Origin: Hirundichthys speculiger
Lineage: Eukaryota > Chordata > Actinopteri > Beloniformes > Exocoetidae
NCBI GenBank assembly: GCA_018398805.1
Contig: JAGFBZ010002033.1
Span: 2,069,501 to 2,133,500, forward strand
Direction: 5' to 3'
DNA: 64,000 nt
Shown here: positions 445 through 54,786 of the stretch, one piece after another
Position numbering within the stretch: the stretch's first letter is position 1
Layout of the letters: each line of letters begins with the position of its first letter
Made by a program: the position numbers and the translations under genes
The notes under the pieces: model-generated
Told to the model about the DNA's origin: nothing
Databases searched by the model: none
What the model saw: the letters and a program-made list of their open reading frames with translations, nothing else

Positions 445-1769
<1,325 letters not shown>

Positions 1770-5488: not shown

Positions 5489-6660
5489 AGCCGTGTTGCT
5501 TTCTTTCCTTATTGTTGTATTTTATTAAGGTCGAAACTTAAAAACTTAAATGTTTCCTTACCATCTTTGCAATGCTTCCTTGTTAGTCATTGAGTTAGCG
5601 ATACTGTTGTTTTCAGGAAATTTGCAGGCTTTGCGTCACTTACTTTCCTTCTAAATGATTATCAAAAGAGATTATTTATTAAAAGAGATTACAAAGGAAA
5701 GATATTAGCAATAAAGTCAGACAACTATTTATTTATTTGTTTCGCTTTTTATTTAGGTCACCAGTATTCTTCTGAAGATCCTTCTGAAGATTGAGTAATG
5801 ATTAGTCAGGAGTTTATGGTCTTTTTCCCACAGCTATTTTTTTATTGAACAAAAACTAAGCCAAGTTACAGAAGTAGTGTGTGAACAATAGATTTCATCC
5901 TATGATTCAGAAGGTTTTAAAACCACTTTTTGCCACAAACCACAAACTTGAAGTACATTGCAAGAATTTGAAGAGTCACTCTATAATTGTGCCTGAATTT
6001 ATTGAGGTTAGTGAGCATTCACATGCACAGTTGTCTGGATTACCATTACTAAACCCAGATTTGTTTCTCTTACAGGCTTTCTGTTGTGTTTGATTTGCTA
6101 TGTTTGGTTTTATCCAAATATGGCACAGTGCATTCTTAACAAACATTTGTTTTGTGTGTCTATAGGTTTGCTCAAATGCAGCTTTGCAAACCTTTGCTGC
6201 GCTGCTGCATGCGTTTTAGGGAGAAGAGACTGTCTCCCTGGTAACTCTTATCAACAACCTACTTCCCTCCATGATTTTCATACCTTCAAAGCTATTCAGG
6301 TATATTGTGTCTCTGTTTTGAAGAGCATTTGTTTTGAATTATTAACTTAATTATTTTTTTTCTACTTGTTCAGAGTTCTTAAGGTTACATATTTACGGTA
6401 AACTTGCCTGATGTTTTTAGCACATCCGTTTCCTTCTGTCCCTTTCAGGGTCCTGCTGGGCAGGTGCATGAAACAGAGGTCCACTGTTTCCAAGACACAC
6501 ATAACTTAAAATTCACAGACCAAAACAAGGAAGCTGTTGTTTCCCAGCACTGCTGTGCATTTGAAAAAGCTCTTTTGTGCATTTCAAAACTTAAACACCT
6601 GAACAAGAAAATCAACTCTATTTTTGCTTTTGTTATAAAATCATGACAACAAACATTTTT
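5489..6660. repeat. Partial copy of the local tandem repeat unit
   Basis: It contains the same blocks, in the same order, as the units at 10479-17391. These are the AACTTAAAAACTTAAATG block (about 5535), the AAGAGATT...GGAAAGATATTAGC block (about 5690) and the TTATTGAACAAAAACTAAGCC block (about 5842). It ends with a block at 6297-6660 that recurs almost unchanged at 17404-17770. It is internally deleted relative to the longer units. No coding sequence is supported; the short reading frame here recurs in both copies only because the DNA does. Confidence 0.65.
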
Positions 6661-10478: not shown

Positions 10479-12231
10479 AACTTAAAAACTTAAATGTTTC
10501 CTTACTATCTTTGTAATGCTTCCTTGTTAGTCATTGAGTTATTGATACTGTTGTTTCCAGGAAATTTGCAGGCTTTGCGTCACTTGCTTTCCTTATCAAA
10601 GATTATTAAAAGAGATTATTTATTAAGAGATTACAAAGGAAAGATATTAGCAATGGTATACCTTTAATGGGGGATAAACAAGTGCTCAAGATGTTAGCAT
10701 CGTTTTGAAATAATGAGAGAGTAATGTATAAGAATTTTTTTGTTCATCCTGCGGTAGTTTTTCATTTATGAATGCAATGATATTTTTGCCAATGTGAAAG
10801 CTGGCATGCTGTCAGCACTGTACATACAAGCTTTTCCTGAATGTTGGCATTAGATGGAGGAAAGAGACAAATGTTTCATTGTTCTTTTTGACTTCTAATG
10901 CATTCACTATCAAATCACTTGTTTGTTTTTCACTGATGCATTTGCAACCAGTCTGGTATCATTAAATAATATCTGAGTTACTCATGAAGTCACCTGTTGT
11001 TTCAGAGCATCTTTAGTTTCATTGTTACAGATGACACCGAAGATCAGCCTCTGTATATGGCTCACCTATTTAAATTAAATTAAACCACAAAGCTATCCAG
11101 CCTTCCTGGGATAAACCACTGTTATGGATTGTTTTGACTCTAAATGCTAATACAGGGACTTACTGTCAACCAAAAATAATAACCATGTCAGTTATTGTTC
11201 TGTGGAATCTCCAGCTGTGTCACTACTATAGATATTAGTTTACTTTGATCTTTACATCTCATTGCACTGTTATTGTATCACCTCCTTTTGTGTGGTTGAA
11301 AAGAACATGAGAAGTGTACATGTTTAAATCGAGCTGATTGTAATTTAACTCCTTTTGCTGTTGTCCCAATGAAAAATTTCTCCCAGTATTGTTTGAAAGA
11401 CAAAACACACACATACACACACGCACACACACACACACAAAAACACCCTGCTCCAATGCAAAAGTTTTCTTTATCAGGAAACAAGATTGAAAAAATAATC
11501 TGGCCCTGATCAGGTCTTACAATTAGAGGAACAACACTTTGCTATTTTTTTATTGAACAAAAACTAAGCCAAGGGGCAGAAGTAGTGTGTGAACAATAGA
11601 TTTCATCCTGTCTGTGTGAGTGGACACATTTATGTCACAAAGACATAATACCTTATTCAATACTAATACAGTCTCAAACATATATGCAGTGGTGGGGGCT
11701 TCTTTGAAGTTTCTAAAGAGTATTTGAGCTTAGTATTTTTAATTTCTTTTTTTCTAATGTTGTCAGGTGACACTCAGGTGACATAAGACATTAGATATTT
11801 GTTTCCAGCAAAAACACAGTGCACATTGACATCAACTGGAGAAATCTAAGAAACTCTACTTGAATAAGAGAAAAAAAAATTAATTTCTTTTTGATGAGCA
11901 TCAGACAGCTGTCTTGCATGTAATAAAGATCACAGATGTTTAGGAGCCAAAGATGTACAGATGTGTTCAGATCTGATAAATAATAAGACCAAAGCATATT
12001 ACCAGTGAAATCCTCCATCAGCATAATAGAGCCAATGGCTTTCTCATTGTGTGAAACCAATACCACATTATATACATGACGTCTTGTACGGTGTATTTGT
12101 ATCTTGCATAGTTATTTATTGTTCTGACAGGTGTATTTTACATTTTTGAAATATGATCCAAAGGATGATATTAACACTTACTTGTGTTTCACCCTGCCTT
12201 TCTTTCCTTATTGGTGTATTTGATGAGCTCG
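10479..12231. repeat. Tandem repeat unit 1 (~1.75 kb)
   Basis: The order of blocks is: AACTTAAAAACTTAAATG; AAGAGATTATTTATTAAG; GTGAAAGCTGGCATGCTG; GAAGATCAGCCTCTG; ACAGGGACTTACTGTC (11153-11168); a CA-rich run (about 11401-11447); ATTGAACAAAAACTAAGCC; CCAATACCACATTATATAC; and TTCCTTATTGGTGTATTTG. The same order recurs in units 2 and 3. No long open frame was found. The nature of the unit is unknown; it may be a segmental tandem duplication of transposon-derived DNA. Confidence 0.7.
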
Positions 12232-16319: not shown

Positions 16320-17403
16320 ACAGGGACTTACTGTCAACCATAAATAATAACCATGTCAGTCATTGGTATGTGGAATCTCCAGCTGTGTCACTACTATAGA
16401 TATTAGGTTACTTCATTCTTTACATCTCATTGCACTGTTATTGTGTCACCTCCTTCTGTGTGGTTGAAAAGAACATGAGACGTGTCTGTTTAAATCGAGC
16501 TGATTGTAATTTAACTCCTTTTGCTGTTGTCCCAATGAAAAATTTCTCCCAGTAATGTTTGAAAGACAAAACACACACACACAAAAACACCCTGCTCCAA
16601 TGCAAAAGTTTTCTTTATCAGGAAACAAGATTGAAAAAATAATCTGGCCCTGATCAGGTCTTACAATTAGAGGAACAACACTTTGCTATTTTTTTTATTG
16701 AACAAAAACTAAGCCAAGGGGCAGAAGTAGTGTGTGAACAATAGATTTCATCCTGTCTGTGTGAGTGGACACATTTATGTCACAAAGACATAATACCTTA
16801 TTCAATACTAATACAGTCTCAAACATATATGCAGTGGTGGGGGCTTCTTTGAAGTTTCTAAAGAGTATTTGAGCCTAGTTTTTTTATTTCTTTTTTTCTA
16901 ATGTTGTCAGGTGACACTCTAACTGAAACCAGCATAGAGCCATAAGACATTATATATTTGTTTCCAGCAAAAACACAGTGCACATTGACATCAACTGGAG
17001 AAGTCTAAGAAATTTTACATGATTAAGAGAAAAAAAAAATGCTTAATTTCTTTTTGATGAGCATCAGACAGCTGTCTTGCATGTAATAGAGGTCACAGAT
17101 GTTTAGGAGCCAAAGATGTACAGATGTGTTCAGATCTGATAAATAATAAGGCCAAAGCATATTACCAGTGAAATCCTCCATCAGCATAATAGAGCCAATG
17201 GCTTTCTCATTGTGTGAAACCAATACCACATTATATACATGCCGTCTTGTGCAGTGTAATTGTATCTTAATTATTTATATATTGTTCTGACAAGTGTATT
17301 TTACATTTATGAAATATAATCCAAAGAATGATATTAACACTTACTTGTGTTTCACCCTGCCTTTCTTTCCTTATTGGTGTATTTGATGAGCTTAAGGCTA
17401 TTA

Positions 17404-17815
17404 TGGTGTATTGTGTCTCTGTTTTGAAGAGCATTTGTTTTAAATTATTAACTTAATTATTTTTTTTCTACTTGTTCAGAGATTCAGAGTTCAGAGTTCT
17501 TATGGTTACACATTTACGGTAAAGATGCCTGATGTTTTTAGCACATCAGTTTCCTTCTGTCCCTTACAGGGTCCTGCTGGGCAGGTGCATGAAACAGAGG
17601 TCCACTGTTTCCAAGACACACATGAACTTAAAATTCACAGACCAAAACAAGGAAGTTGTTGTTTCCCAGCACTGCTGTGCATTTGAAAAAGCTCTTTTGT
17701 GCATTTCAAAACTTAAACACCTGAACAAGAAAATCAACTCTATTTTTGGTTTTGTAATAAAATCATGACAACAAATATTTTTTTGATTCTTGACTAATGA
17801 TTCACTAATAGTGAA
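17404..17815. repeat. Partial repeat copy matching 6297-6700
   Basis: It is nearly identical to 6297-6700, including GGGTCCTGCTGGGCAGGTGC and CACTGCTGTGCATTTGAAAA. The two copies bracket the whole tandem block. The short reading frames in both copies differ at their N-termini because of small indels, so they are not treated as genes. Confidence 0.7.
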
Positions 17816-18552: not shown

Positions 18553-21500
18553 TCATTGCAGCTGTGACAGAAGGACCCTGCAGTCCCCAACTCTATCCAG
18601 CTCCTCCACCACCTCAGTCAGTTGTTCAACCTTCTCTGATGGAAGCACCATTTCTGCATTGTATTTGAACTTCTTCCTCAGGCTCTCATTTGTCAGTGGG
18701 TTGCGCCAGTGACCGTAGAAAGTGTCACAGCGCCCCTTCAGAATGTCTCCTCCCACCAAGTGTTACTTGGACTTCGCCATACATGCGGTTGAAATTCGCT
18801 GGGTTGTCATGAGGATGTTCCAAGCGAACACAGCTCAGCAGAGCGAGCAGCTCTGGGGCGACTCATGGCAGCTGGGGTGAAAGACTGCACAGTCACCTCG
18901 CCATCCAGGAGAGCGCTGCAAGCATTATACTGGAAGGAATGGCGCGCTTCGTGCTCAGACTTAGGGAAAGGCCTGTTGATGTATTTAGACTGGGGGACTC
19001 TGAGCAGAATGTCTTTGACTTGAGCTGGGGAGACCTTACCATCATCAACTCCCACAAGATGTTTATGGACTGAGGCTGCAGCATCTGCCACCCAGTGCAT
19101 CCCCAGATGAGCAGGGAAGCGCTTAAAGCCCATATCCTGCTCCTCTAACAGGAACATATGACCGCCATCAGTGGGTGATTCCAAAGATGTTGGAACATAA
19201 TCTTCATAGAAAGCATTGAAGCCTGCCACCCCTGCAACAGCATCCAGGACTAGAGGACTGGCCTCTAGACCCCTGGAGGCCAGTAGAGCAGCTTCAAGAC
19301 CCAGACGGGAAGCATTACCAATATGAAGGGGTTTAGACTGAGTGGCAGCATTAGCCATTGGGGCTCCAGCTAGAGAGGCAGCTATAGCCAAGGCATGACT
19401 GCACTGGGAGGCATCCAGAGACAGGAGACGAGCACAGGCTGCTGCACTTCCCATGGTACCAACCACACTGGGTGGATGAAACCTGAAGAGAAAAACAAAC
19501 AGACACTTTAGTCAGCTGTTTTTGTAATGGTTTACTCTTGCAAGGAAAGACCTTTTTCAAATTAGTGCTTCAAAACTACATTATATTGCATGCAAACAGA
19601 ACATTTGTGTAAAAAGATTTTTGTTCAGTGCAACTCTCCATATGCAGTGACAGGCTTGTTCATGGATGTTTTTTTTTTCTTTTTTCCATTGATGTCAGTA
19701 TTAGATAAACAAGCAATAATGTCCCAGGTCATTTGAGTTGGCAAAAACATTCGTCAAATGGTGTGTCCTGAGATATTCTCCTCTACATGGCTAATTCCAC
19801 TAACACAGAAGGCCTCTAATGTCCCTGAAATGACTATGTTAACACTCTATTCACAGTTCACTGACACAGCTAAAAGGCTACACATTGCACCTCTTTGCAC
19901 GGAAAAGTGCAGAGATCAGCAGAGTCAAATAGGCATGTCTATAAATTAATGTGGGTACTTGCAGAATGGGGTAAGAATGGGAAAATATTAAGAAAAAAAT
20001 CGGCTTTGAATCACTTAGGAAGACAAAATATGAGAGAAAATATACTATAATGTTGCTACCAGGCTTATGTTCTGAAGCACAAACCTCTTGGGGATGTTGT
20101 GGGTCTCATTAGAGAATCTCATTAGACGGCCCTGGATCTCGATGCCAACATTGAAGGCAAGCAGGAAGTCCAAGCCGCTAGGCTTACTGCTAGATGGTAT
20201 CAGGTCGCTGAGAGCTAACACGGCAGGAAGGACTGCTCCTGACGGATGAGTGGCAGGGTGCCACGTATCATCAAAGTCCATGGAGTGAGTCTAAAAGCAA
20301 ACAGATTTTCATCAAATGATACATCATAACAGAAGTGAAAGCAATTAAAATGCTTTTGATACTCTCACTCTTGCTGTACTCTTGCTGTGCTTCTTTAAAA
20401 TACCACAGAAGCCAGTTGTAAACCCTCTGTTTGTTTACTCTAAATGATGCAATTTTCTTCTCCACACCCATATTTTTTTTTCTCCCTTAGGGAACATTGA
20501 CTCTTTAACTTTGCTTAGTCAGACAGTTATATTTTAAAGTGTTGTGTAATATCCACCTTCAGCCCCTGGAGGCAAATACAAGGTGCACAACTCAGCTTGA
20601 CATTCAGATGACGTCTTTGGAAACAAGGGGTAAGTATTGTTTTGGCATGTAAAGATGGAAATTTCTGAGCTCAGTTTAGTTATTTTTGATTTTTATAAAC
20701 CCCTCCTGTTTACAGGAGGAATTTATAAAAATGAAAAATGCTGAGTGCTGTTTAGACAGCTTCTGAGTATCTGCGGTGTCATTTCTGACTGACTGAGCTA
20801 ATGAGTTTTTTATCTGAGTGGATTTCTCTGATGTACTGGGGAAAATGGAGACAAATATTTTCTGCTAATTTACACTTACCGCCACGCCGTTGACAAAAGC
20901 GGCCAGTGTTGGGGAGAGCCTGATGCCTCTGCGGCCGTACACCGAGCTGATCTCATCAGGAGCATACATATGCTGGAGGGAGGGAAAAGCACACATGTTG
21001 CAGTCAAGTTTTTGAACCTGGATCCCATCACCCTGCAAATGATATTCTGAATAACTTCCTTTGTATGGCATGGAAAAATTTAAAGGCCATCAGGGGGCGA
21101 CAAAAACATAAAAATAGAACCAAAGTCTTTTTTCTTTTTTTTTTTGTCTGTCATTCCACCTGTCCGCACACTGAATTTGTACTGACTTAGCTCTTGTGTT
21201 TATATAAGGTCAGGCATTTGCTTTCATCTGTCTTCTTGCCTCAGATCAGACAGGATTTTAATAAAAAGCTTTTTTTTTTGCTCTTTTTTTTTTTAATCAC
21301 TTTTTTTTTTTTTTCAATTTTTCTCACCAGGCAGTGCTGCAGGGCCAGTTCAAACACATCTGTTGTGCTTCCAATCAGACCCACTCCGATGCTGTCCAGC
21401 ACCATCCTCTTGCTGCGGTGGAGCACAACTGGTGATAAATGCTGGGGCTTAATTTCACTGATGAACTTTCCAAAACTAGCTGTGACAGTGTCCTCAGGGG

Positions 21501-22193
21501 CAGGGCGCTTCAACACTGCAGGAATTCAGGGAGCAAAAAAAATGAAAAGGAATGACAAATGTTAACATTTGTATAAATAGAAGTGATTTTCATGAAGACT
21601 GAACTCCAGAAAAATATTTTTGCTGGTGTTTGAGAACATGACAGAGACAGCAAACATGTTTACCTTCAACTGCAGACTTCTGCAGTCCCCTGACAGTCTG
21701 CACTGGTCTAAAGGTTTTTTGTATGACAGACATCTGGAAACCACAAAGGGGACATGATTCATTCATTTATATATAACAGGCTGTTGATATACATGGCAAT
21801 TTTCTACTTTTTTTTTTCCTTTTTGTCAAACTCAGAAGACTTTGCTATCGCTGTAATGAATATCACTCAGTCTTGTGTTCCTATTTGAAAGAGCTATTGT
21901 GCTGTCGAGTGCTGCAACAGGTGTGGTTCAGCATTTTCACACCAGCATTTGATACAAGCTCTTCCCTCTTGTGCTCCCAAAACAAAAACCTACACAGTAT
22001 ATATTCCAAAATTATTTTACATTTTTCTCAACAGAAAATTAAAACTATCATAACATTAAGTGAGTCAAACTCTTTTCTATAAACTCACAACTAGGATTTA
22101 TGCCCATAATTACAATCTGGAAAATGTAGATTTGTATATGGTAAAAATAGGTATTCAGAAGTGATTAGTTTGTGCCCGTACCTTGGAGAGCAT
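18553..22193 (-). CDS. acod1: cis-Aconitate decarboxylase (ACOD1/IRG1), 6 exons, last exon with two apparent frameshifts
   Basis: This MmgE/PrpD-family enzyme decarboxylates cis-aconitate to itaconate in mitochondria of activated macrophages. Exons from the 5' end are 22193-22182, 21733-21664, 21515-21328, 20972-20880, 20290-20085 and 19482-18553. All junctions keep phase. The N-terminus MLSKMSVIQKTFRPVQ looks like a presequence. Signature segments: MDFDDTWHPATHPSGAVLP (Asp, Thr and His of the active site), the His opening exon 6, SKPLHIGN (Lys), FPAHLGMHWVADAA (His) and SEHEARHSFQYNA. In the last exon the frame breaks twice: an extra A in CGCCCCAGAGCTG (about 18851-18857) and an extra G in ACTTGGTGGG (about 18756-18762). 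Without those two bases the protein would be about 498 aa, near normal, and the family C-terminus (GRCDTFYGHWRNPLTNESL) is present in the shifted frame. It is either a recent pseudogene or carries assembly indels; five intact exons favour the latter. Confidence 0.88.
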
Positions 22194-22290
22194 GGCTTTA
22201 TTCAGACGTTCCTTTCTTGCCTCTCTGTGATGCAGCAGCTTTGCTTTGTTGAAGGATGCTGATACTTCTCTGGACTAAGAAGTCACCCGC

Positions 22291-22297
22291 CTTTATA
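22291..22297 (-). promoter_or_regulatory. TATA box of ACOD1
   Basis: The minus strand reads TATAAAG about 100 bases upstream of the ACOD1 start codon, which predicts a transcription start near 22265. The element suits a strongly inducible gene. Confidence 0.65.
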
Positions 22298-22386
22298 TTC
22301 CAAGACTCACAAAGGCCACAAATACCTGGCGTAAAGTAACAGGAAAGGGGAGGCATTCACAGCAACCTCTTATCATATCAAAAGGA

Positions 22387-22395
22387 GGGATTTCC
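22387..22395 (+). promoter_or_regulatory. Putative NF-kB site between ACOD1 and fusion gene 1
   Basis: GGGATTTCC is a 9-bp kB-type site about 90 bases upstream of the ACOD1 TATA box and about 65 bases upstream of the first exon of the divergent gene. Mammalian ACOD1 is induced by TLR/NF-kB signalling, so the position is plausible. A single 9-mer can occur by chance. Confidence 0.4.
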
Positions 22396-22457
22396 ATCAC
22401 AGTTGTACAAGTGGAATCATCACTATCCTCAGGGGAGGAGAAGAAGGAAGTTATTTC

Positions 22458-22622
22458 TGTCAGGTGCATGGCAGTGATGTCATGTTTTATCTTGCTGATC
22501 GTATGAGAGCGTTTTTTCTTCCTACCAACTCCTCCTCTGTCAAGGAAACCCTTATTTATAACAAACTTTCATCCCTGCTTCAACACAACTCAACAGTCCT
22601 TCTGTCTGAGCAACATTACCAG
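22458..22622 (+). other. 5' untranslated exon of fusion gene 1
   Basis: A good donor (CAG|GTAAGAG) ends an exon at 22622. Joined to the acceptor at 23334 it gives an in-frame stop before the main ATG (TGCAACTAA), so the exon is non-coding. It contains short upstream ATGs. The 5' border is a guess. Confidence 0.5.
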
Positions 22623-23343
22623 GTAAGAGTTTTTTTTTATTACTGACATAACTGAAGCCACTAAGATACATGCTGTACTTAGGACGATGATAAAACAATG
22701 AACTCTATTCATTAGATAGATACCTCATGGAAATGTTTTTTCAATGAGAATTTTTTAAGGAGACTGAAAAGATAGAAATAAAAATAATAACTATTTTTGG
22801 GATAAATACTAAATATCAGTCTTATAGTTTAGAACAAAATGTTTGTATTGGAGACCTGGTGCCACTTTTGATTGAAGAGAGCAGAAAAGCTGAATGGCGC
22901 TTTAACTTTTACTTCTGTCAGACCACAACATTGGCTGAGTCCGCTAATGACAGTGGAGGACTGGAAGGTTTCAGGTGTCATATTTATGATAATAATACAC
23001 TAAAGTGCTCAAGAGAGGACCTTTTTGTCACGTCTATAAACTAACAAAACATTAACTGAATTTTTGCTGAATGTCTGAATGATTTACATTCAGACATTTG
23101 ATCTTCTTGTTATTTTTGCCCCACAAGTGCTTTCCCCCCAAAAACTTTTTACAACAAAATTAAGTTTCATCTTCATCACATCACTAAATCTAGTAATTTA
23201 TTCTTCAATTTGGACATTGTGTTGTAACAATAAGGAAATCAATATTTACACACTAATTTGAACTTTCTGTAAACATTTATATTGTGTTTTCTGTGCCATT
23301 TCTTTTTTTTTTTCGTTGTTTTAGTGCAACTAAAACAAGCGTT

Positions 23344-26300
23344 ATGGAAGCATTAGATGGATTTCCAGCCAGTTTCTACGGGGAACCAGGCGTGTTAGGC
23401 ATGCTATCGAATGGGATCAGTGCATTCCTTGTACTCATGCAGAACTTCAATACAGCTCACACTGGCATTTCACCAGTCGGAGTAGAGAACATACTTGCAG
23501 GTAAAACCTTAAGAAAACATATTCATATATCATGAAGTAGAAAAAAAAAAGGTTAGGAATTTCAAAATCTTTTTTCTGTGTTTCTTTTTACAGGTGTTCA
23601 TCTCATCCTGATTGGTGGCATTTGCCAACTGGTGGCTGGACTGCTTTCCTTTCGAAAGTATGATCACCTGAGTGGCACTGCCTTCATTGGCTATGCTGCT
23701 CTTTGGGGTAGTTATGGTGCTACCCGTATCTACTATGGTTCCTTATATGATGATCAGAAACTGTCAGTGTCAGATCAGTTTAACAGCTCATGCAGTAACA
23801 TGACGAGCAACACGTCTCTGAATGCCTCCAGAGATTGTCATTTATACTTGACCTTAGAGCAGTCAGCGATTGCTGGTCTGGTCCCCTATATCCTTCTGTC
23901 ATTTCTCCTAGCATTTTGTTCTGCCACAGTCAACTACATTATGCCTTTTGTTTTTGGGGCCATCACGGCCACTTTAATCTTTGAAGCCGTAGCATTAGTG
24001 GCAGATTCCTGGGCTCTCGTGGTCTCTGGGGTTCTCGAGTTGCTCATTCTGATCTTTGCCATCTACGGTTCAGCTGCTCTCCTTGTCAAAGGTCTAACTC
24101 AGCGTCTGGCCCTCAAAGGCTTCGGTACTCCCCTCTTTAATGTTCTCCTGCTGGGGACGCCCAATTCAGCAAAAGCCCAGAGCATTGGTCAAGAGAAGAA
24201 GAAGAACACAAAATATGCTGAGCCAATGGCATTGGGTTTCTTCTGTGACTCAGTTGCTCCTTTTATTTTTGCTTTCTACAGTTTTGGTTACATGAAGTCG
24301 TTTGGTTTAGGAGTTGCATGGGTCTCAATCATATCAGCTGCTCAGCTGCTTTCCAGCTACTATGCCCATCTGCGCCAAGACGTCTACTACTCCTCCAAGT
24401 TTGGAATTCATGCTACATATTGGCTGATCAAGGCTTGGGATGAGTTTGTGGTATCTGCACTGAGTCTGAGGGATGCTCAAGTTGTCCCTGGGAGGGAAGC
24501 AATGGTGGGAGACTGGTTTTTTGTAGCTGCAGGCTTAGTGCTCTGCTTGGGAAGCCTGAACATTGACGTCTTAGAACTGATCCATAACTTACTCTTCGTC
24601 CTGCTCACAGTTGCGACAATCCCCCAGATCCCCCTGCAAGGTTACTACATCTTCTTTGGTGTAGCTTGCTCCCTTTTTACTGCAACCTCCATCTATGGCA
24701 CCTTCTCACGTCTCATCAACACCATCGCAGAAAAGTCTCTCATCCCTGTAGGACCGCAGCCCATCTCCACTGACAAGCTCAAGAGGGCTTTGAAGTGCAG
24801 AGGGTCTCCACAGGGAGACCAGGAGGTGCTGCCCCAAACTGACCAGGCTTCTGATGCCCTGTTCTACTTTTCCAATGGGGTTGCATCTCTTTCTGCTCTT
24901 CATTCAAGCATCTCCAGTACAAATCTTACATTTCTTCATATGACTGTCCCCTGGGTCCTCATCTCTGGAGCAATCATCCAGGCCTATGTCAGCAGGCTGC
25001 AAGTGACAGCGGGTGGCCGGTTTGGATCAGTCATCGCATCCCTCTATGTGGTTGTATGGGCAACATGGACCTGGTTTAGGTTTGCAGGTACATCGCTGTA
25101 TGTGAGATGGATTATGGTGTTTTTGTCATGATTCACATAAAATTCTGATCACATATTTATTTTGTAGGTAACCAGCTTCAGTTCTCTGCAGAGGCAAATT
25201 ATGGTTTCACAGCAGGAGGCATTGCCTTTCTTGTCATTAATGCCTTCCTTATGCTGACTGGTAAGGTTAATTTGGGGTTTTGTTTTCATTTATTGTTTTT
25301 ATACAATTATTTGTTTTGAGGATTTTAAAAAAGAAATACTTGTGTCAGCTGCTCACAGGAACCTGGTCCTGCTGTTTCTAACAGCACTAATGGAGGTGGT
25401 TCTGGTTTGTTTTCTACTCTCCACCCTGAATCGCCTGCCATATGAGCTTGAAAGTAAGTACAAAAAAAGTCTCATTTTTAAATGTAGAAACAATCTTTAA
25501 TCAGATCATGTGCCCATTTGTCTTATATTAACACTTTTCTTTCTTTTACAGTAGCCATGCTTGCACTGGTTTCAATCATTTGCCTATATGGCACTTTAGC
25601 TTCATTGATAAACTGCATCTTCTCACAGAGAATGCTTCCAATGGGGCCTCCCTTGATAAAGGTAAATAATAAAAAACAAATATAGAATTTTCTGTACTGT
25701 ATGTATATGTATGTATATACGTACATATACATACAGCTTATGTATGTATACCCGTGCATTCATCAAACACATCACTGCCCTTTTGCCCTGTAGGAAAAAG
25801 TGAAGCAGGCAACATCTCCAGAGCTGCCCTGTCCAGTGGCTAACTCACGTCTCACCAGCGGCCTCTTAAAGATTGCTGGCCTTCTGGATGAGGGAGGAGT
25901 CTGTGGTATTCCTACAGACACTGTGTATGCTCTGGCCGCCTCATGCAAGAATCCTCAGGCGATAGAGAACATCTACAACATTAAAGTGAGAAAAAAAAGA
26001 AGGTGTTTGTTGTTGTGTAAGATGTGAAAAATGATTGAATTTTACTTACATAGTGTGCTTCCATTCTAGGAAAGACCAGCAGAGAAGCCCATATGCATTT
26101 GCATCTCTAGTGTGGAGCAACTGGTAGAAGCCAAGCCCCCTTTCAGTCCCCTGCTGTGGGAGTTTATGAAGAACGTGTATCCTGGAGGCATCAGCTGCAT
26201 CGTCAGGAAAGGAGACTGGCTGTTCAATTTAGGTAAATAGTGTAGGCCACATGTGTCAAACTCAAGGCCCGCGGACCACATTCGGTAGACAAATCTAATA

Positions 26301-26909
26301 ACACTGACAGCAATTTCAGTTTGGTTCCAAAAGAAAGTTCATGTAAACTCTAAATGTATCTTGTGTAGGAGTGGGACCAGCTTATGACCGTGTTGGTACC
26401 AGGGACAGCATCATGATCCGCGTCCCTGACCATACAGTGACTGGCCACTTATGTAACATTACTGGACCTCTTGCTATTACCTCAGCTAATCCCAGTGGAG
26501 AACCAGACAGCACCCACCACAACATGGTCATCAAGTAAGACTTAGCTTGAAAGGACTATAGTGCAACTGACAACTTTTAAAAAATTGTGCTGGAAGTTGC
26601 TGAAAGTGGAAATTGAATCTCTCTTGTTTTCACCATTTGTGTTTACACAGTCGACTGGGCCACAAGATCCAAGGAGTTCTCTGTGACGGGTACTCAAATG
26701 AAGTTGTTGCTTCCACTGTGATCAACTGTCTGAACATTGATGAAGGTAAATGCATGCCTCCTAGTAAACCTCTTGATGAGTGTTTTATTAAGCCTTTTAA
26801 AACCCATCTCACTCTTTATCCAGGTACCATCTCCATTGTGAGAGAAGGCTGTGTTCCAGCCATTAAGGTCCAACAGATCTTTGACAGGGTTAAGAACACA
26901 ATGCTCTGA
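23344..26909 (+). CDS. AceTr-like multipass membrane protein fused to C-terminal YrdC/Sua5 domain (fusion gene 1), 10 coding exons, 886 aa
   Basis: Exons: 23344-23500, 23594-25087, 25168-25260, 25349-25453, 25552-25661, 25794-25985, 26070-26232, 26369-26534, 26651-26745 and 26824-26909. All phases match and there is no break. Residues 1-653 are very hydrophobic. They hold segments like the acetate-uptake (GPR1/FUN34/YaaH) family: GEPGVLGMLSNGISAFLVL, then GGICQLVAGLLSFRKYDHL and SGTAFIGYAALWGSYG. A second copy starts YAEPMALGFFCDSVAPFIF. A third, weaker copy reads ISGAIIQAYVSRLQVTAGG. A loop (about residues 135-160) has NSS, NMT, NTS and NAS sequons. Residues 654-886 form a YrdC domain: IPTDTVYALA (PTDTVY 693-698), IKERPAEKP and GPLAITSANPSG (SAN 810-812). 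YrdC proteins make threonylcarbamoyl-AMP from ATP, bicarbonate and Thr; here the domain is tethered to a membrane. Substrate and activity are unknown. The gene is head-to-head with ACOD1 and tail-to-tail with a paralogue. Confidence 0.88.
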
Positions 26910-43610: not shown

Positions 43611-46600
43611 TCAGCTGAAATAGTAGACGGTGTTGAGTTTCCAATTCCGCTCTCTGACTCTGAAGTTGTCCTGCTCTTCTGAACTTAGCTCCCTTTGTGT
43701 GTCTGGTGGAAGCATTTCATGTTCAAAACCAGGATTAATCTGTCCTTGTCTGTGCCGATTCTGAACCTCCTCAAAGATCTTAAGAACCTTGAAAACAAAG
43801 AGAAAGTGGGGGAAAAAAGACACAGGTGTTAAGGTTTGTGCACTTACCAAAATTACAACAATTTGAGATGGACCTAAGAGAGCAAGTGGAAATATCTATG
43901 TTACCTTGGATTTAGGGATAAGACCCACTCTAAAGAAACCAATATGCCCAGTTTCAATCTTGGTGCAGTCAACTACAGTAGATGCAATGTTCTCCGGGGA
44001 GGGCCCATCACACAACACTCCATCCACCTACAACCAACCAAATGCACATCATATGAGGAAAAAAAAAATCACTTAACCAGTTCCTCCTGAGTTTATGCTA
44101 AATTACTGCTAGTACCTTGTCTCCCAGCTTGGCATAAACTTGGTTATGGTGAGTTGTATCTGCCTCGCCTGTAGGGTTGGCTGAGGTTACCGCAACGGGC
44201 CCCACCTACAAAAAGAAAAAAAGAGGTTATTTACTGCTGGGTTTTCTAGCTGGTTGTCATTAAATCTAAAAATTGCAGTGACTTATTACTCAACACCTTT
44301 ACCAGATTAATGAGATGTGTTGCTACTGTACAGTCTGGGTTTCTGATTGCAATGCTTTGTGGAGTTCCAATGTGTTTGGCAGCATCTCCCAAACCAAATG
44401 TGTCCATCCAAGGGCCTGTGTGAGACAAGAAAACTGCATGAAGCTCATAAAATGGAAAAAAGATCTCACGAACGCACAAAGCATTTTGATTACAAATATG
44501 GAATCACTCACCTCTGGGAATGACCATGCTAATGGAGGATGGCCACGCGGCCTCCATGAAATCCAGGAGTAGAGGGCTCAGCAGGTGTCTGACAGGCTCC
44601 AGCTGTTTGATAGAGGAGATCCACATGGACATGGGTCGGTCCTGAGCCTGCTTTTTCACCCTGGAGCCAAACAACAGAGAGCAATGAGAGGGAATCACAA
44701 TATTATTGTAGCTAAAGCCATATTCCTGAACTGGAAACCTTACTTGTAAGCTTTGACAACTGCATCTGGCCTGTTGCAGGCTGCTACCAGCACATAGACG
44801 GTGTCAGTTGGCATTCCACATGTGCCACCATTTTTCATAATTTCTACGTAAGTAGAGGAGTTGGGAAGAGGAACAAATAAACCCATGTCCAGCGTATAAA
44901 CACAGGTTATTTTAGAAATTAAACATGACAAATTAAACTTGACACTGACTCTTATCCCTCACCTGCAATCTGCTGAACTGATGTTGCCTTGCGGGCTGGT
45001 ACATGTGGGCAGGCCTTTGCACCTCCTCCTACCCCACCCAATTTGACTAAAGGTTTTCCTAAGGGGATCTGGGGAGACTGGAAGGTGCTGTTGAAAATCT
45101 GCGCGAGGAAACAGTAAAAACTGACGAGGCCAAAGATAATGGTGACACCTATGTCATAACCGTAGGGCAGCGCCGCTATGGCATCCAGCAGAAAGCTAAT
45201 GAGTATAAGTTGGAAGGTGAGAGCGTAGACAAACCATGCAACATTTAGGAATAACGCTGCAACTGTCACTAGACAGTTAAACAGCATGAAGCTAATGATC
45301 CCAACAGACACACTGAAGCCTCTGGTTTCACCATACAGGCCGCCATATCGGGTCAATCCCCACACTGTCCACATCATCCCATAGAGAATAAAGACTGTGC
45401 TCTCAAATGTTTTACCCCGAGCAAACGCAACTGAACCACACAGCAGCTGCAGCACCCCACCAGCCATCACTGCCCAGGGCAGAACAAGCACAGAGAGAGG
45501 TTCTTTGCTGCCAACTGTGGCTGTGATAGCAAAAGCAGCCAGCACACTGCATGCATGACCCAACACCTCTGCATCTGCATATTTAGAATAGCCCAGGTGA
45601 GGTGTGTGCCTTTCTTTGTCGTGCTCTCTGAGAGTAAAACTTCGCATCCTTGATAGTAAAGCTTTAAAATAACCCTGCCCAGTAGGAATCTGGTTGCTGG
45701 TAACCATGTTCAATGTGGTGATTAAAAGCATGCCAGCAGAAACTATAAAAATAGCTGCCTGCACACCTTGAGTGCCTCCTTGGAAGAAGCCCTGAGGCTG
45801 TGCTGCAATGGAAATGCAATAGGCTACAAAGAATAACTGGTAGAGTCCATCTAACAAGCTCTTCTGGCAGCTGAACAGTGCTAGGACAAAGAAAAGCACT
45901 GAGAAAACAACAGGGAAGGGGACAGGGGAGAAGGGCTGAATGGAGTACATAGACAGCAGAGCACTGTAACCTTCTGCAAATTTCAGCACGGCTGTGAATC
46001 CATAGAAAGTGGCAGCTAAAGGGTCCATAGCTCGGTAGGAGAGGATACAAATACCAAGCTGGAACACTCCAGCAGTCCACAGCCAGGGCACATGTCCAAC
46101 AAAGAGTCGGGGGACCACACCTAAAAGGGGACAGGCTAATACAGCGGCAGATAGCAAGTTCATCACCAAGCCTACAACAACAGCATCACTGCACCCCTGG
46201 TTTTGCACCGTTTTCAGCTCAGTTTTTTGCTTGAGTCCTGTTCGTGGAGGTTCATCTTTGCCCTGAGTAATTGCAGACAACAGATGTGCAAAACCGAAAT
46301 AAACACACACTAGACATACAAGGAAGTAGTTAGCAGCTGTGGCAGACTGTCCGAACCTCAATGCCGAGAGACCAGCAATCTGATGTGCGCAGGCTAAAGA
46401 AATACCAACAGCTATAAGAAACAGAATTGCTTTTCTCACGATGAGAGCAACGCTGCCTATGATGAACAGTGCTAAGGTAAATGCTGCCAGGCCAGGGACC
46501 AGAGAGGACCTCAGCTCTTCTGACTTCAGCACTTTCTGCCCCACCAGGATGTACACCAGACCTGAACCACACCACAGAGCTGAGACGGTCAAACAGAGAG

Positions 46601-47857
46601 TGGAAAACAGCTGTGTGTGGGACAGACTGTGAAGGACACCTGGGAGAGAGAGGAGGCAGGGTCAGAGAAAAACGATGATCTCTGTGAGCAAAGGCAATAT
46701 TATGATCACATCTGTACAAACCTGCATAAGCAATAAGTGCTGCGATGACGAGGAGCAGAATCCCCAAGGCAGTGTGGTGGATGAAGTCTTTTCCAGGAAG
46801 GCTGGCATAGTTGTTCACCAAAAGCAGGAGAGACCCTGTTGGTTAAGACCGCATTATCTTGAGCTGATAACTGTGAGCCTTTAACAAAAGCGATAATTTA
46901 ATTAGTTTTTTTTTTTCTTTTTCTTTTAAGGAACTGGAAACATAAAATTGTAACAAAACGTATCTGGATAAAAAATAAATGTTTTTTTACAAGGACTAAG
47001 AGTTAACTTAATATCTCAGACTTTACAATCAAGTATGAATAATGCCAAACTTACCTATGACTTCTGAATTTATGCAAGATGCATAACAGATTAATGTTGC
47101 TCACATTAAATCAAGTCATTATTACTTTTTGTGTCGTTTACACTTAATATATCATCAGTTTAGGAATATTAGTTTATTTTCCCCATTATATTGATTTAGA
47201 CTCATATGCCAACAAAAAAAATCTTAATTTTAGTTTAATAACACTATCTCAGGCTCATGAATTTGTTCAGTTTGTCTCACTGTTTTCCAAATAATCACAA
47301 AGCAAACTGATTATAAGATGTATGCGGACAGTGGACTTTTATGTTTGCAAAATCCAGTTAATGTGATCACTTATGCACTGATCATTAATGCATGACATAA
47401 ATACGTATTAAATGTTTTGAACTTATGATAAAAAAAAAAAGAAAACTAACTGCATCAACGACTTTAGACATGTTTCACAAGTGGACAATAATGCATCCAG
47501 TAATTAATCACGAACTAGAATACGAGCGAGAATCAGTTTCACATTACTGAATTATATGATTTGTATTTGTATTTTTTTTAATATTTTTTTTCAACTTATC
47601 TTTACATACAGTTGATGATGATGAATAACGGGTAAACACTGTTAAATAGAATCAACTAGTGAGAGACAAATAGACGAATAAATAAAATAATGAATACATA
47701 ATACATGAATAGTGGACAACAAAGAAAAAAAGACAACAACAGCGACAAAACAAAACAAACAAACAAAAAAATAAGCAAAAACAACAACATTTCTAAACTT
47801 ACCACTAAAGATGCCGAGAATTCCGACGGACACATGAAGTGACTGATACTGCGCCAT
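43611..47857 (-). CDS. AceTr-like multipass membrane protein fused to YrdC/Sua5 domain (fusion gene 2), 9 exons, 865 aa
   Basis: Exons: 47857-47803, 46835-46722, 46639-44963, 44843-44744, 44660-44512, 44415-44303, 44205-44116, 44027-43905 and 43787-43611. Phases agree throughout and no break was seen. The start MAQYQSLHVSVGILG lies in a good context (GCCATGG) just after a TATA box. Residues 1-615 are a membrane region homologous to fusion gene 1. The clearest AceTr-like unit is DAEVLGHACSVLAAFAITAT, followed by GGVLQLLCGSVAFARGKTFE and STVFILYGMMWTVWGL. Residues 616 to about 807 are the YrdC domain: CGMPTDTVYVLVAACN (PTDTVY 627-632), QAQDRPMSMW and GPVAVTSANPTGEADTTHHN. A 58-residue charged tail (one exon) replaces the short end of the paralogue. 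The membrane part sits almost wholly in one 1677-bp exon. The function is not known; it is divergent from the ES1-like gene. Confidence 0.88.
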
Positions 47858-49163: not shown

Positions 49164-50207
49164 ATGGCAAAGTGTGTTGCTGTTATTCTGTCTGGCTGTG
49201 GAGTCTATGACGGCACAGAGATTCATGAAGCCTCAGCTGTGCTTGTTCATCTGAGTCGTGCTGGGGCAAAAGTAAGGACAATGAAGACCTAACCCCCCCC
49301 CCCAAAAAAAAAAAAAAAAAAAAAAATTCTTTGTCTGTCTCAAGCATTTAGTCCTTATAGTAATTTCATAAGAAGTGCACATCCTTAGATGTGGAGTTTA
49401 GTGATGTATACATTGTCCAACATACTGTTGTTTGATTTTAGGTGCAGATGTTTGCTCCAAATGCAGATCAAATGCATGTTGTAAATCACTGTGAGGGGAA
49501 ACCTACAGAGGAGAAGAGAAACATCCTCCAGGAAAGCGCCCGCATCGCCAGGGTGACGTGACTGACCTGCTCAAGTTAGATGCCTCAGCATTTGATGCCG
49601 CCATCATCCCAGGTGACACTGCCTTTGCCATAAATCCCCTCAGAGTGAGATGCATAACGCCCCTCAGTTTTTCACATCTGAACATTTGGGATTTGTTTAA
49701 ACGGATCTTGTTGTGCTTCATCAGGGGGCTTTGGTGTGGCTAAGAACCTGAGTGATTGGGCTGTCAAGAACAAGGACTGCAGCATTCAGCCACATCTAGA
49801 AAAGGTCATCAAGGATTTCCACAAAGCTGGGAAGCCTCTGGGCATGTGTTGCATCTCCCCTATCCTGGCAGCCAAGATCCTCCCTGGGTGTGAGCTCACT
49901 GTGGGGCAGGACAAAGAGTGTGAAAAGTGTGTGAAACAGTTTCTCAGCTAACATAGATGCTAACAGTTATGAGACTATTTCAGTCAAAATTTCCTGTCTT
50001 ATCCTCCTTAGGTGGCCGTTCGCTCAGACAGCAGGTGCTGTGAAGGAGATGGGCTGCAAACATGTCAACAAAGATGTGGAAGAGGCTCACGTTGATGTCA
50101 AAAATAAGCTGGTCACCACCTGTGCCTTCATGTGCAACGCCCCCTTTCACAAAGTTTTTGATGGAATAGGTGTCATGGTTAAAGAGACTCTAAAACTGGC
50201 TAAATAA
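49164..50207 (+). CDS. ES1/GATD3-like class I glutamine-amidotransferase-fold protein, 4 coding exons, one apparent 1-nt deletion
   Basis: Exons: 49164-49271, 49442-49612, 49725-49926 and 50012-50207, with an untranslated exon at about 48610-48676. Residues run [20 protein letters not shown] ... [19 protein letters not shown] ... [18 protein letters not shown] ... [20 protein letters not shown]. They match the ES1 family (human GATD3, bacterial ElbB), a DJ-1/glutamine-amidotransferase fold. The nucleophile-elbow Cys lies in GMCCIS. GATD3 is linked to mitochondria and ElbB-type proteins to glyoxal metabolism. This copy starts directly at the core domain, without a presequence. In exon 3, GCCAGGGTGACGTG (about 49548-49561) leads to a TGA; one more G restores the family frame (RIARG..VTDLLKL) and gives correct phase to every later junction, for 225 aa. 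So it is either an assembly error in a G run or a fresh null allele. Poly(A) signal AATAAA at 50338-50343. Confidence 0.85.
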
Positions 50208-53368: not shown

Positions 53369-54786
53369 TTATGCGCTTCTGCTGGAGAAATGACTGAACT
53401 GGTCGGTCCCACACACCACCATTGTTGCATGAAACTTCCTGGGTCGTTCAGGATCCTTGTATCGAAACATTTAAAATAAATAAATAAATAAAAAAAAAAA
53501 GAAAATCAATATACAGTGCACAACAAACATTTTTAAAATACAGAAAGCGTGCTAAATATATTTCTCTCACCTCTATGGGGTATGCACAGGTGGGAACATA
53601 ACGGATCACAAAGCCGCAGCGCCTCATCTGGGAAGTGTTGGCGTCACTTGCATGGACTAGAAGTCCATCATGGATCTGTTGAAATAGTTTTGATTTTAAA
53701 TTTAAATTTGTTCAGCTTGCATGGATTTCAGACCTATTTAGAACCACAAATTTCTGACTTACAGACATCTGCCCAGCTTTCAGAGGGCAAAACACAGCTT
53801 CCTCCACCTGTAGCAGCTCCTCAGGGATCTCCTGGTTGATTGACAGCATGTTCCCAGGACGGATGGCTTGACGATGGGGCAGCATGCCAGAGCAGTGGCT
53901 ACCTGCAGGGAACAAGTGTCATGGGGGGGGGGGTTCAGTCTTGAACCAGGACTTTGGCCTGTAGCATGAACTTGCATAGAAAGCATAGATGCAGTTTAGA
54001 TACCTGGGATGACCCGAAGGGCGCCGTTTTCCTTTACTGAGTCATCAAAACCGAGCCACACAGAGAGAACAGGCCCACCTGCAATGCCCCAGTACCTGTG
54101 AACAGAACCGTCACAGTTAAACAAAACAATACCAAGCAGAACAAAACTGTGCTCTTTTTTTTTAATTTTTTTTTTTCATTAAGTCTGACTCACTTTATGT
54201 CCTGGTGCCAGGCCACATATGGAAGTTTAGTCTCTCCACCATTCCCATCTGCCTTGGGTGGATTTTCCTCACTCCCCTGGATGTTGGCTGGTTTGATAGC
54301 TGGGTACTTACAGATGAAGCGGGAGTCCAGTAGAATGACGTCGGGGCCCAGGATGGCTTGGACCACTTGCAGAATGCGAGGGTGTTTGGTCAGATTCATC
54401 ACCCACGGATACTGAAGATGAACATTGTGGAGGCTGTACTGAGTGTACTCCTCACCTGTGTATTCACACAAATACCTTAAACACCCATACTGTACATCTG
54501 AACAATTAAATATATTTTTTGAACTAACATGATAATAAAATATACAGATAAAAAGGAAGGAAATATTATCACTTTATTTAAGCTCTATTTCCTTCCTGCT
54601 TTCTCTGACAGTTTCTATTATGTTTCCTCTACCTGCATCATCTGAGTATTACTTACCAAATTCCTCCTCTAACTTGGAAAAGGCCAGTCTGGCCTCCCTC
54701 AGCTCCGGCTCATTCAACACAGGCAGTGCAGAGAGGAAGCCCTGCTGCTCATAGCGCTCCTGCAGCTTATCTGATGTTGTAGTCAT
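53369..54786 (-). CDS. Phytanoyl-CoA dioxygenase (PhyH)-family Fe(II)/2-oxoglutarate oxygenase, 6 coding exons, 271 aa
   Basis: Exons: 54786-54657, 54455-54194, 54095-54004, 53902-53763, 53675-53571 and 53455-53369. All phases agree and the frame is intact. The fold's metal triad is visible: His and Asp in AWHQDIKYWG (about residue 126), and the distal His in IHDGLLVHASDAN. They are followed by the 2-oxoglutarate-binding Arg region RRCGFVIRYVPT. Other family marks are NVHLQYPWVMNLTKHPRIL, GPDVILLDSRFICKYP and WLGFDDSVKENGALRVIPGS. There is no N-terminal targeting peptide, so it is probably cytosolic. The substrate cannot be read from sequence; relatives are often named hypophosphite-dioxygenase-like, which need not reflect function. 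A non-coding first exon (55349 to about 55375, donor GTATGG) and a TATA box lie upstream. It could equally be called PHYHD1-like. Confidence 0.88.

What the first reader, a model, noticed from the sequence alone, without database searches (positions are those of the whole stretch)
23344..26909. Membrane transporter-like protein with AceTr repeats fused to a YrdC/Sua5 domain
The exon model is intact over 886 codons and every splice phase fits. The N-terminal 650 residues show two clear and one weaker copy of an acetate-uptake-family (GPR1/FUN34/YaaH) pattern: EPGVLGM.../GGICQLVAGLL...YAALWGSYG, EPMALGF..., and ISGAIIQAYVS.... The C-terminal 230 residues have the YrdC marks PTDTVY, KERP and SAN. 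YrdC normally makes threonylcarbamoyl-AMP for tRNA t6A as a soluble protein. I know of no established vertebrate protein that joins this domain to a multi-repeat carboxylate-transporter-like membrane part. It could be a sensor-transporter, a bicarbonate- or nucleotide-gated channel, or a non-tRNA carbamoylating enzyme.
Basis: partly seen in the sequence, partly recalled or inferred. Interest (0 to 1): 0.9.

Follow-up and report, generated by a model that had tools for sequence, protein, structure and literature searches.

The report
Fish carboxylate-transporter/YrdC fusion beside itaconate gene
The gene is real and joins three copies of an acetate-transporter-like membrane unit to an enzyme-like YrdC domain, a fusion described in print in 2026; here it lies head to head with a gene for the itaconate-making immune enzyme, which hints at its unknown job.

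Summary
Gene A (+, 23344-26909) splices cleanly into 886 codons: three tandem AceTr-like six-helix repeats, then a YrdC/Sua5 domain (E 8.5e-37). A profile of its repeats and a paralogue's matches only SatP in the PDB (E 3.5e-7). The architecture is already in print: PMC13316224 (June 2026) describes ~900-aa vertebrate ATO proteins with this layout, absent from mammals, function unknown. What I add is context. Gene A is head to head (TATA-like boxes ~260 bp apart) with a cis-aconitate decarboxylase (irg1/ACOD1-like) gene, the itaconate enzyme. A second, diverged fusion gene B lies ~17 kb away. In zebrafish, irg1l co-varies with three si:ch211-153b23 genes, one labelled YrdC-domain-like; orthology is by name only. 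A's YrdC passes the TC-AMP-synthase equivalog cut-off; B's fails and has lost the KxR arginine. Best reading: an inflammation-induced carboxylate permease or channel of the itaconate pathway with a cytosolic TC-AMP-synthase-like domain. Transport, substrate and enzyme activity are inferred; the AceTr signature motif is degenerate; the neighbouring irg1-like gene carries two frame breaks in this assembly.

The parts
23344..26909 (+). Gene A: coding region of the AceTr x3 + YrdC fusion; exons 23344-23500, 23594-25087, 25168-25260, 25349(or 25334)-25453, 25552(or 25555)-25661, 25794-25985, 26070-26232, 26369-26534, 26651-26745, 26824-26909
   Evidence: Open, phase-consistent, all nine introns GT-AG
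23344..24162 (+). Gene A repeat 1 (aa 1-242), six-TM AceTr-like; loop after TM3 carries four N-glycosylation sequons
   Evidence: PF01184 30.1 bits, E 4.6e-7; sequons at aa 116, 121, 125, 129
24196..24762 (+). Gene A repeat 2 (aa 254-442; bounds set by eye)
   Evidence: Matches repeat 3 by hhalign E 9.4e-7; not SatP alone, E 0.22
24835..25655 (+). Gene A repeat 3 (aa 467-651; bounds set by eye), across four exons
   Evidence: hhalign to SatP E 2.3e-4, probability 44%, together with its gene B counterpart; PDB profile search lists only SatP, E 0.36-0.48
25842..26909 (+). Gene A YrdC/Sua5 domain (PTDTVYAL, KERP, SAN, STV present)
   Evidence: PF01300 E 8.5e-37; TIGR00057 126.1 bits vs cut-off 123.2
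22580..22622 (+). Predicted 5' untranslated exon of gene A (start approximate, donor at 22623); TATA-like TATAACA at 22557
   Evidence: Sequence inspection; inferred, no RNA evidence
22297..22563 (.). Divergent promoter region between the irg1-like gene (-) and gene A (+); holds the window's only GGGATTTCC (NF-kB-like) at 22387-22395
   Evidence: nine motif patterns tried; TATA-like sites of this kind are expected 0.84 times per 500 bp, so suggestive only
18553..22193 (-). irg1/ACOD1-like cis-aconitate decarboxylase gene; coding exons read by eye, approximate: 22193-22182, 21733-21664, 21515-21328, 20972-20880, 20290-20085, 19482-18553; the last exon reads in three successive frames (two frame breaks)
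   Evidence: PF03972/PF19305; PDB cis-aconitate decarboxylase E 2.1e-73, 8.3e-31, 6.9e-14, 1.3e-4
43611..47857 (-). Gene B: second fusion gene, 865 aa, exons 47857-47803, 46835-46722, 46639-44963, 44843-44744, 44660-44512, 44415-44303, 44205-44116, 44027-43905, 43787-43611
   Evidence: Open, phase-consistent, all eight introns GT-AG; PF01184 28.3 bits, PF01300 E 2.1e-30
49164..50204 (+). ES1/GATD3-like (DJ-1/PfpI) gene, divergent from gene B; possible cluster member (the ES1/GATD3 name is recalled)
   Evidence: PF01965 32.5 bits on a by-eye splice
53372..54786 (-). Phytanoyl-CoA dioxygenase-like gene; possible cluster member
   Evidence: PF05721 E 7.1e-23 on a by-eye splice

Best explanation
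Gene A encodes a vertebrate ATO protein: three tandem AceTr-like six-helix units (about 18 TM helices) with a C-terminal YrdC domain, most likely cytosolic. Two chains would make the six-pore ring seen in SatP (the ATO paper's hypothesis). It is most likely an inflammation-induced carboxylate permease or channel of the plasma membrane or endolysosomal system, serving the pathway of its head-to-head partner, cis-aconitate decarboxylase. Its likely cargo is itaconate or a related di- or tricarboxylate. The YrdC domain binds ATP, threonine and bicarbonate, and either makes TC-AMP or uses that binding to couple transport to cell state. Shown here: the gene structure, the repeats, YrdC homology with conserved active-site motifs, the head-to-head ACOD1-like gene and a second fusion gene. 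Shown in print (zebrafish, genes matched by name): co-regulation with irg1l. Inferred: transport, substrate, topology, pseudo-hexamer, enzyme activity, shared promoter.
For: AceTr homology: the six-repeat PDB profile search hits SatP only; B is above the Pfam cut-off and so is A repeat 1 cut out; 18 TM segments before YrdC in B. Sequons in A lie in the loop after TM3 of repeat 1 and at the edge of TM2 of repeat 3 (aa 496); both are external if the N terminus is cytosolic, and 18 helices then put YrdC in the cytosol. A's YrdC passes the TIGR00057 equivalog cut-off. The ACOD1-like gene is divergent from A, TATA-like boxes about 260 bp apart. Zebrafish: irg1l correlates with si:ch211-153b23.4 (r 0.90).3 (0.88) and .5 (0.86) over 18 exposures; they are three of the top five of 62 genes compared (54, 8; data of PMC8877790 Table 2). 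Of the six papers holding the si:ch211-153b23 name, four also hold irg1l: listed together in Shigella-infected larvae, a PFOS exposure, a WGCNA module and Table 2. The SatP constriction Phe is N, D, N, N, S in the five repeats aligned there; the sixth (B1) is gapped. The ATO paper says that Phe98Ala in ScAto1 eases the constriction and enables succinate transport.
Against: No transport or enzyme data exist. The NPAPLGL signature, described as critical for uptake (passages), is degenerate in all six repeats (best 3 of 7). Mammals make itaconate but have no ATO protein (for the absence), and MCT1/MCT4 carry itaconate in mammalian macrophages (PMC12658120 abstract), so ATO is not obligatory for itaconate biology. 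The zebrafish genes were matched by name (.4 is labelled YrdC-domain-like), not by sequence; adjacency to irg1l there was not checked; which of .3/.4/.5 equals A or B is unknown. sult5a1 (0.91) and si:ch211-207n23.2 (0.90) track irg1l as closely. Two of the six papers with the gene name do not hold irg1l. The irg1-like gene's last exon is frame-broken twice here.
Confidence: 0.4

Rival explanations
1. A carboxylate/acetate/bicarbonate permease whose cargo is not itaconate; it shares only the inflammatory regulation with irg1l (for example pH or short-chain-acid handling in stressed epithelium).
For: SatP and Ato1 carry acetate, lactate and, for SatP, succinate (PMC13316224 passages); sult5a1 and si:ch211-207n23.2 are as tightly co-regulated with irg1l.
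Against: Head-to-head placement with ACOD1 and polar residues at the constriction Phe position favour a larger dicarboxylate, weakly.
Confidence: 0.3
2. The YrdC domain is the working part: an inducible, membrane-anchored TC-AMP synthase that tunes tRNA t6A or another threonylcarbamoylation during inflammation, with the repeats as a sensor or anchor.
For: A's YrdC passes the TC-AMP-synthase equivalog cut-off and keeps KxR, SAN and STV (translation, alignments); the YrdC part is better conserved between A and B than the membrane part (45.5% vs 22.8% identity).
Against: B fails the cut-off and has lost the KxR arginine; YG of PTxTVYG is YA in A and YV in B; a separate soluble YRDC is expected elsewhere in the genome (recalled, not tested).
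Confidence: 0.15
3. A non-transporting scaffold or receptor that senses carboxylates or nucleotides.
For: Degenerate NPAPLGL motif in all six repeats; B's YrdC looks impaired.
Against: Two open genes with the same three-repeat layout.
Confidence: 0.1
4. Two separate genes wrongly joined by the exon model.
For: No RNA reads were available; an intron of 132 bases (25662-25793) separates the last membrane exon from the first YrdC exon.
Against: Phase-consistent junction; same architecture in gene B; ~900-aa vertebrate fusions in print.
Confidence: 0.02

Closest known systems
Vertebrate ATO proteins (Ghasemi et al. 2026, PMC13316224)
   Same: Three Gpr1/Fun34/YaaH domains in tandem plus a C-terminal Sua5/YciO/YrdC domain, about 900 aa; the paper's example structure is from a fish (Oryzias melastigma).
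   Different: No difference seen in architecture; clade not tested. The paper's main text holds 0 occurrences of itacon-, irg1, synten-, cis-aconitate and catalytic, which is what this locus adds.
SatP succinate-acetate permease (5zug, 5ys3) and fungal Ato1
   Same: Six-helix unit; the only PDB match of the six-repeat profile.
   Different: Single-domain hexamer with NPAPLGL and an F-L-Y constriction; here three repeats per chain, degenerate NPAPLGL, Phe replaced where aligned.
TsaC/Sua5 L-threonylcarbamoyladenylate synthase
   Same: A passes TIGR00057; KxR, SAN, STV kept.
   Different: Solved relatives are not fused to a membrane part; PTxTVYG reads YA in A and YV in B; B lacks the KxR arginine.
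ACOD1/IRG1 cis-aconitate decarboxylase (neighbour)
   Same: The head-to-head gene matches solved cis-aconitate decarboxylases at E 2.1e-73.
   Different: Its last exon has two frame breaks in this assembly.

Membership tests
Vertebrate ATO-YrdC family (PMC13316224) | Three AceTr-like six-helix domains in one chain | tested here: met
   Repeat profile, hhalign and hydropathy; repeat 2 only through repeat 3; no usable fold model
Vertebrate ATO-YrdC family (PMC13316224) | C-terminal Sua5/YciO/YrdC domain, total about 900 aa | tested here: met
   886 aa, PF01300 E 8.5e-37
Vertebrate ATO-YrdC family (PMC13316224) | Falls in one of the two vertebrate ATO clades | not testable with these tools
AceTr transporter family (SatP/Ato1) | Score above the PF01184 cut-off | tested here: inconclusive
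   A full length 20.9 < 25; A repeat 1 alone 30.1; B 28.3; 2 of 6 repeats match singly at E<=10
AceTr transporter family (SatP/Ato1) | NPAPLGL signature and F-L-Y constriction | tested here: not met
   At best 3 of 7 signature residues (EPGVLGM, EPMALGF); Phe replaced in 5 of 5 aligned repeats, B1 gapped; Tyr kept in 3 of 6 (A1, A3, B3); Leu not assessed
AceTr transporter family (SatP/Ato1) | Hexameric carboxylate/proton transport | not testable with these tools
   Needs experiment
TsaC/Sua5 TC-AMP synthase | NCBIfam equivalog cut-off TIGR00057 | tested here: met
   A 126.1 vs 123.2; B 106.8, not met
TsaC/Sua5 TC-AMP synthase | KxR, SAN and PTxTVYG motifs | tested here: inconclusive
   A keeps KxR and SAN, G of YG is A; B has Q for the KxR R and V for the G, where the five printed solved relatives have R and G
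ACOD1/IRG1 (neighbouring gene) | Closest solved relatives are cis-aconitate decarboxylases | tested here: met
   4 of 4 pieces tested hit them first
ACOD1/IRG1 (neighbouring gene) | Intact reading frame | tested here: not met
   Two frame breaks in the last exon as assembled

The most novel reading that the evidence does not exclude
Fish (and perhaps other non-mammals) keep an itaconate gene cluster in which cis-aconitate decarboxylase and two ATO-YrdC proteins are co-induced. ATO-YrdC is the dedicated itaconate (or cis-aconitate) permease, gated or coupled by a cytosolic YrdC domain that senses ATP, threonine and bicarbonate or makes TC-AMP. This would be a carrier whose place MCTs take in mammals.
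Probability: 0.25. Interest if true: 0.85.

Novelty: new member of a known kind. Interest (0 to 1): 0.55.

Why it matters
The vertebrate ATO-YrdC family was described in June 2026 with no known function. Head-to-head linkage with the itaconate enzyme here, and co-regulation with irg1l in zebrafish, give a concrete, testable hypothesis: a carboxylate carrier of the itaconate response in fish. If right, it would name a carrier missing from mammals and offer a reason why an enzyme domain sits on a permease.

Tried and rejected
Structure: two AlphaFold jobs on the longest single exons (B exon 3 and A exon 2, two-row alignments) gave mean pLDDT 41.1 and 38.5, helical but unusable, so no fold search was run. 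Pair profiles of repeat 2 and of repeat 1 find nothing in the PDB at E<=10; repeat 3 finds only SatP at E 0.36-0.48. Promoter motifs: C/EBP, AP-1, STAT, ISRE and the 10-base kB pattern have no site in 22150-22650. No tRNA or gathering-threshold Rfam match in the window. tblastn of A and B against the window showed matches only at the two genes, including cross-matches and internal repeats. Ten ORFs elsewhere gave only a weak BED zinc finger. A gene-model artefact was considered and rejected (see rivals). Four si:ch211-153b23 / YrdC paper searches found nothing or one paper.

The correlation uses PMC8877790 Table 2: irg1l against 54 genes and the 8 rows of the table's second page (r from -0.47 to 0.10). 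Rows tfr1b, hbbe1.2 and fkbp5 were dropped for missing or ND values. The median of -0.07 is for the 54.

Full report
WHAT IS THERE. The window is eukaryotic DNA with spliced genes; the species is not given, and the zebrafish and fish parallels below suggest a teleost (inference). Gene A occupies 23344-26909 (+). I rebuilt it exon by exon: ten coding exons, nine GT-AG introns, consistent phases, one stop at the end, 886 aa. Two acceptors are ambiguous (25334/25349; 25552/25555); the other combinations stay open and give 885, 890 or 891 aa. Residues 683-867 are a YrdC/Sua5 domain (PF01300, E 8.5e-37). Against solved structures, the best relatives of this part are threonylcarbamoyl-AMP synthases (9d3h, E 2.7e-18).

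MEMBRANE PART. Full-length A scores 20.9 bits for PF01184, below the curated 25. Repeat 1 alone scores 30.1 and the paralogue B 28.3. Scanned singly, 2 of 6 repeats match PF01184. In a plain phmmer search A reaches SatP only at E 0.077. The stronger test was a profile of all six repeats of A and B against the PDB: 2 of 177,635 distinct sequences reach E<=5, and both are SatP (3.5e-7 and 1.6e-6). As two-row profiles against SatP, repeat 3 gives E 2.3e-4 (probability 44%), repeat 1 3.3e-4 (38%) and repeat 2 0.22 (0.3%); repeat 2 is tied in through repeat 3 (E 9.4e-7, 91%). These pairwise E-values come from comparing single pairs, so they are weaker than database E-values. A simple hydropathy scan gives 18 segments before YrdC in B; in A it lists 17, one of them doubtful (224-242), and misses the third helix of repeats 1 and 2. 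Structure prediction failed (mean pLDDT 41.1 and 38.5); only two rows could be supplied.

TOPOLOGY (INFERRED). A has four sequons in the loop after TM3 of repeat 1 and one (aa 496) at the start of TM2 of repeat 3. Both are external if the N terminus is cytosolic; after 18 helices the YrdC domain is then cytosolic. Glycosylation would argue for the plasma membrane or endolysosomal route rather than mitochondria. A sequon also occurs inside the YrdC domain (aa 801), and B's only one (aa 573) lies at a presumed inner face, so sequons alone are not proof.

PRIOR ART. Ghasemi et al. (PMC13316224, iScience, 22 June 2026; abstract, section 14 and search passages seen) report vertebrate ATO proteins of about 900 aa, three Gpr1/Fun34/YaaH domains, almost all with a C-terminal Sua5/YciO/YrdC domain, in two clades with every major vertebrate lineage except mammals. 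They propose that two chains form the six-domain ring of SatP, and leave function open. The fusion is therefore not new. Their main text has no occurrence of itacon-, irg1, synten-, cis-aconitate or catalytic.

NEIGHBOURS. On the minus strand, starting at about 22193, lies an irg1/ACOD1-like gene. Two of its exons match solved cis-aconitate decarboxylases at E 2.1e-73 and 8.3e-31, and hold the stretches HSMDFDDTWHPATH, RFHPPSVVGT, SKPLHIGNA and KYINRPFP. That these hold the active-site residues (D93, T97, H103, H159, K207, Y318) is recalled from the literature, not from a call. It starts head to head with gene A; TATA-like boxes are at 22297 (-) and 22557 (+), a kind of site expected 0.84 times per 500 bp. 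The only GGGATTTCC in the 64 kb window falls between them (22387); nine patterns were tried, so this is suggestive only. The last exon of the irg1-like gene encodes ACOD1-like sequence in three successive frames. The two frame breaks sit at short C and G runs; they may be assembly errors or real damage.

SECOND FUSION GENE. Gene B (-, 47857-43611, nine exons, about 17 kb from A) is open at 865 aa with the same architecture (PF01184 28.3 bits and PF01300 E 2.1e-30). A and B share 22.8% identity in the membrane part and 45.5% in YrdC. A's YrdC passes the TIGR00057 equivalog cut-off (126.1 vs 123.2) and B's does not (106.8). The five solved relatives printed have arginine in KxR where B has glutamine; A keeps it. 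Both lack the glycine of PTxTVYG (A: alanine, B: valine). So A may be an active enzyme and B is likely impaired. tblastn of A and B found matches only at these two genes.

EXPRESSION (PUBLISHED, ZEBRAFISH). Six papers in the library hold the si:ch211-153b23 name; four of them also hold irg1l. PMC6980646 (passages) lists irg1l, si:ch211-153b23.4 (called YrdC domain-containing protein-like) and .5 side by side in its top-50 heat map of Shigella-infected larvae, which also lists a phytanoyl-CoA dioxygenase-like gene. PMC9228135 (passages) has irg1l.4 and .5 among the top five up-regulated genes of one PFOS exposure. PMC11140123 (passages) has irg1l.3 and .5 among the five top hub genes of a module with inflammatory terms. 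From PMC8877790 Table 2 I computed correlations with irg1l over 18 exposures: sult5a1 0.91.4 0.90, si:ch211-207n23.2 0.90.3 0.88.5 0.86, next 0.62, median -0.07 over 54 genes; the 8 genes of the second page lie between -0.47 and 0.10. That table lists genes selected as altered, so the background is not the genome. The other two papers: PMC11489432 shows .3 with log2 change -6.36 in stim2 mutants, adjusted p 0.18 (passage); PMC7083608 lists .5 among methylation-changed stickleback genes (passage). The gene names share a BAC clone name, which by naming convention (recalled) means they are neighbours. I did not verify that they are orthologues of A and B or that irg1l is next to them in zebrafish.5 could be the ES1-like gene.

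HOW IT MAY WORK. SatP and fungal Ato proteins pass small carboxylates through a pore constricted by F, L and Y. In the repeats here the Phe position is N, D, N (A1-A3) and N, S (B2, B3); B1 is gapped in the alignment. The ATO paper says that Phe98Ala and Leu219Ala in ScAto1 reduce the constriction and enable succinate transport. A wider, polar pore plus an ACOD1 partner suggests di- or tricarboxylates such as itaconate. The opposing facts are the degenerate NPAPLGL motif in all six repeats, the existence of itaconate biology in mammals, which lack ATO, and MCT1/MCT4 as mammalian itaconate carriers (PMC12658120, abstract).

VERDICT. Observation confirmed; interpretation partly supported; the architecture is already in print. 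The locus adds a specific, testable link to the itaconate response. Searches in which I saw no paper linking the fusion gene to itaconate transport: (PMC open-licence papers only; long result lists were seen in part, and most papers as listings).

Noticed in passing
18553-18870 (-): The irg1/ACOD1-like gene's last exon reads in three successive frames, each piece matching cis-aconitate decarboxylase: two apparent frame breaks, either assembly errors or a damaged gene.
   Followed up: partly
49164-50204 (+): ES1/GATD3-like (DJ-1/PfpI, PF01965) gene, divergent from gene B, so the window holds two head-to-head pairs.
   Followed up: partly
53372-54786 (-): Phytanoyl-CoA dioxygenase-like gene (PF05721 E 7.1e-23); a gene with a similar label (zgc:174917) is listed with irg1l in Shigella-infected zebrafish larvae (PMC6980646).
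   Followed up: partly
57780-60222 (-): Coiled-coil gene that by eye resembles TNIP/ABIN (EDDFRRERSDKQVLQRLL; name recalled); Pfam gives only a sub-threshold NEMO CC2-LZ hit.
   Followed up: partly
900-1766 (+): Glyoxalase-domain gene fragment (PF00903 E 1.9e-8 on a by-eye splice).
   Followed up: partly
6383-6643 and 17444-17765 (+); 11794-12111 and 17026-17274 (-); 11262-11541 and 16449-16685 (-): ORF pairs that look very similar by eye point to a repeated segment in the first 18 kb, probably transposon-derived.
   Followed up: no
3095-3376 (-): Weak BED zinc-finger match (E 0.00094, 19.6 bits vs cut-off 20.6), possible transposon remnant.
   Followed up: no
zebrafish, PMC8877790 Table 2: sult5a1 and si:ch211-207n23.2 track irg1l as closely as the si:ch211-153b23 genes do; a wider regulon seems likely.
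   Followed up: no
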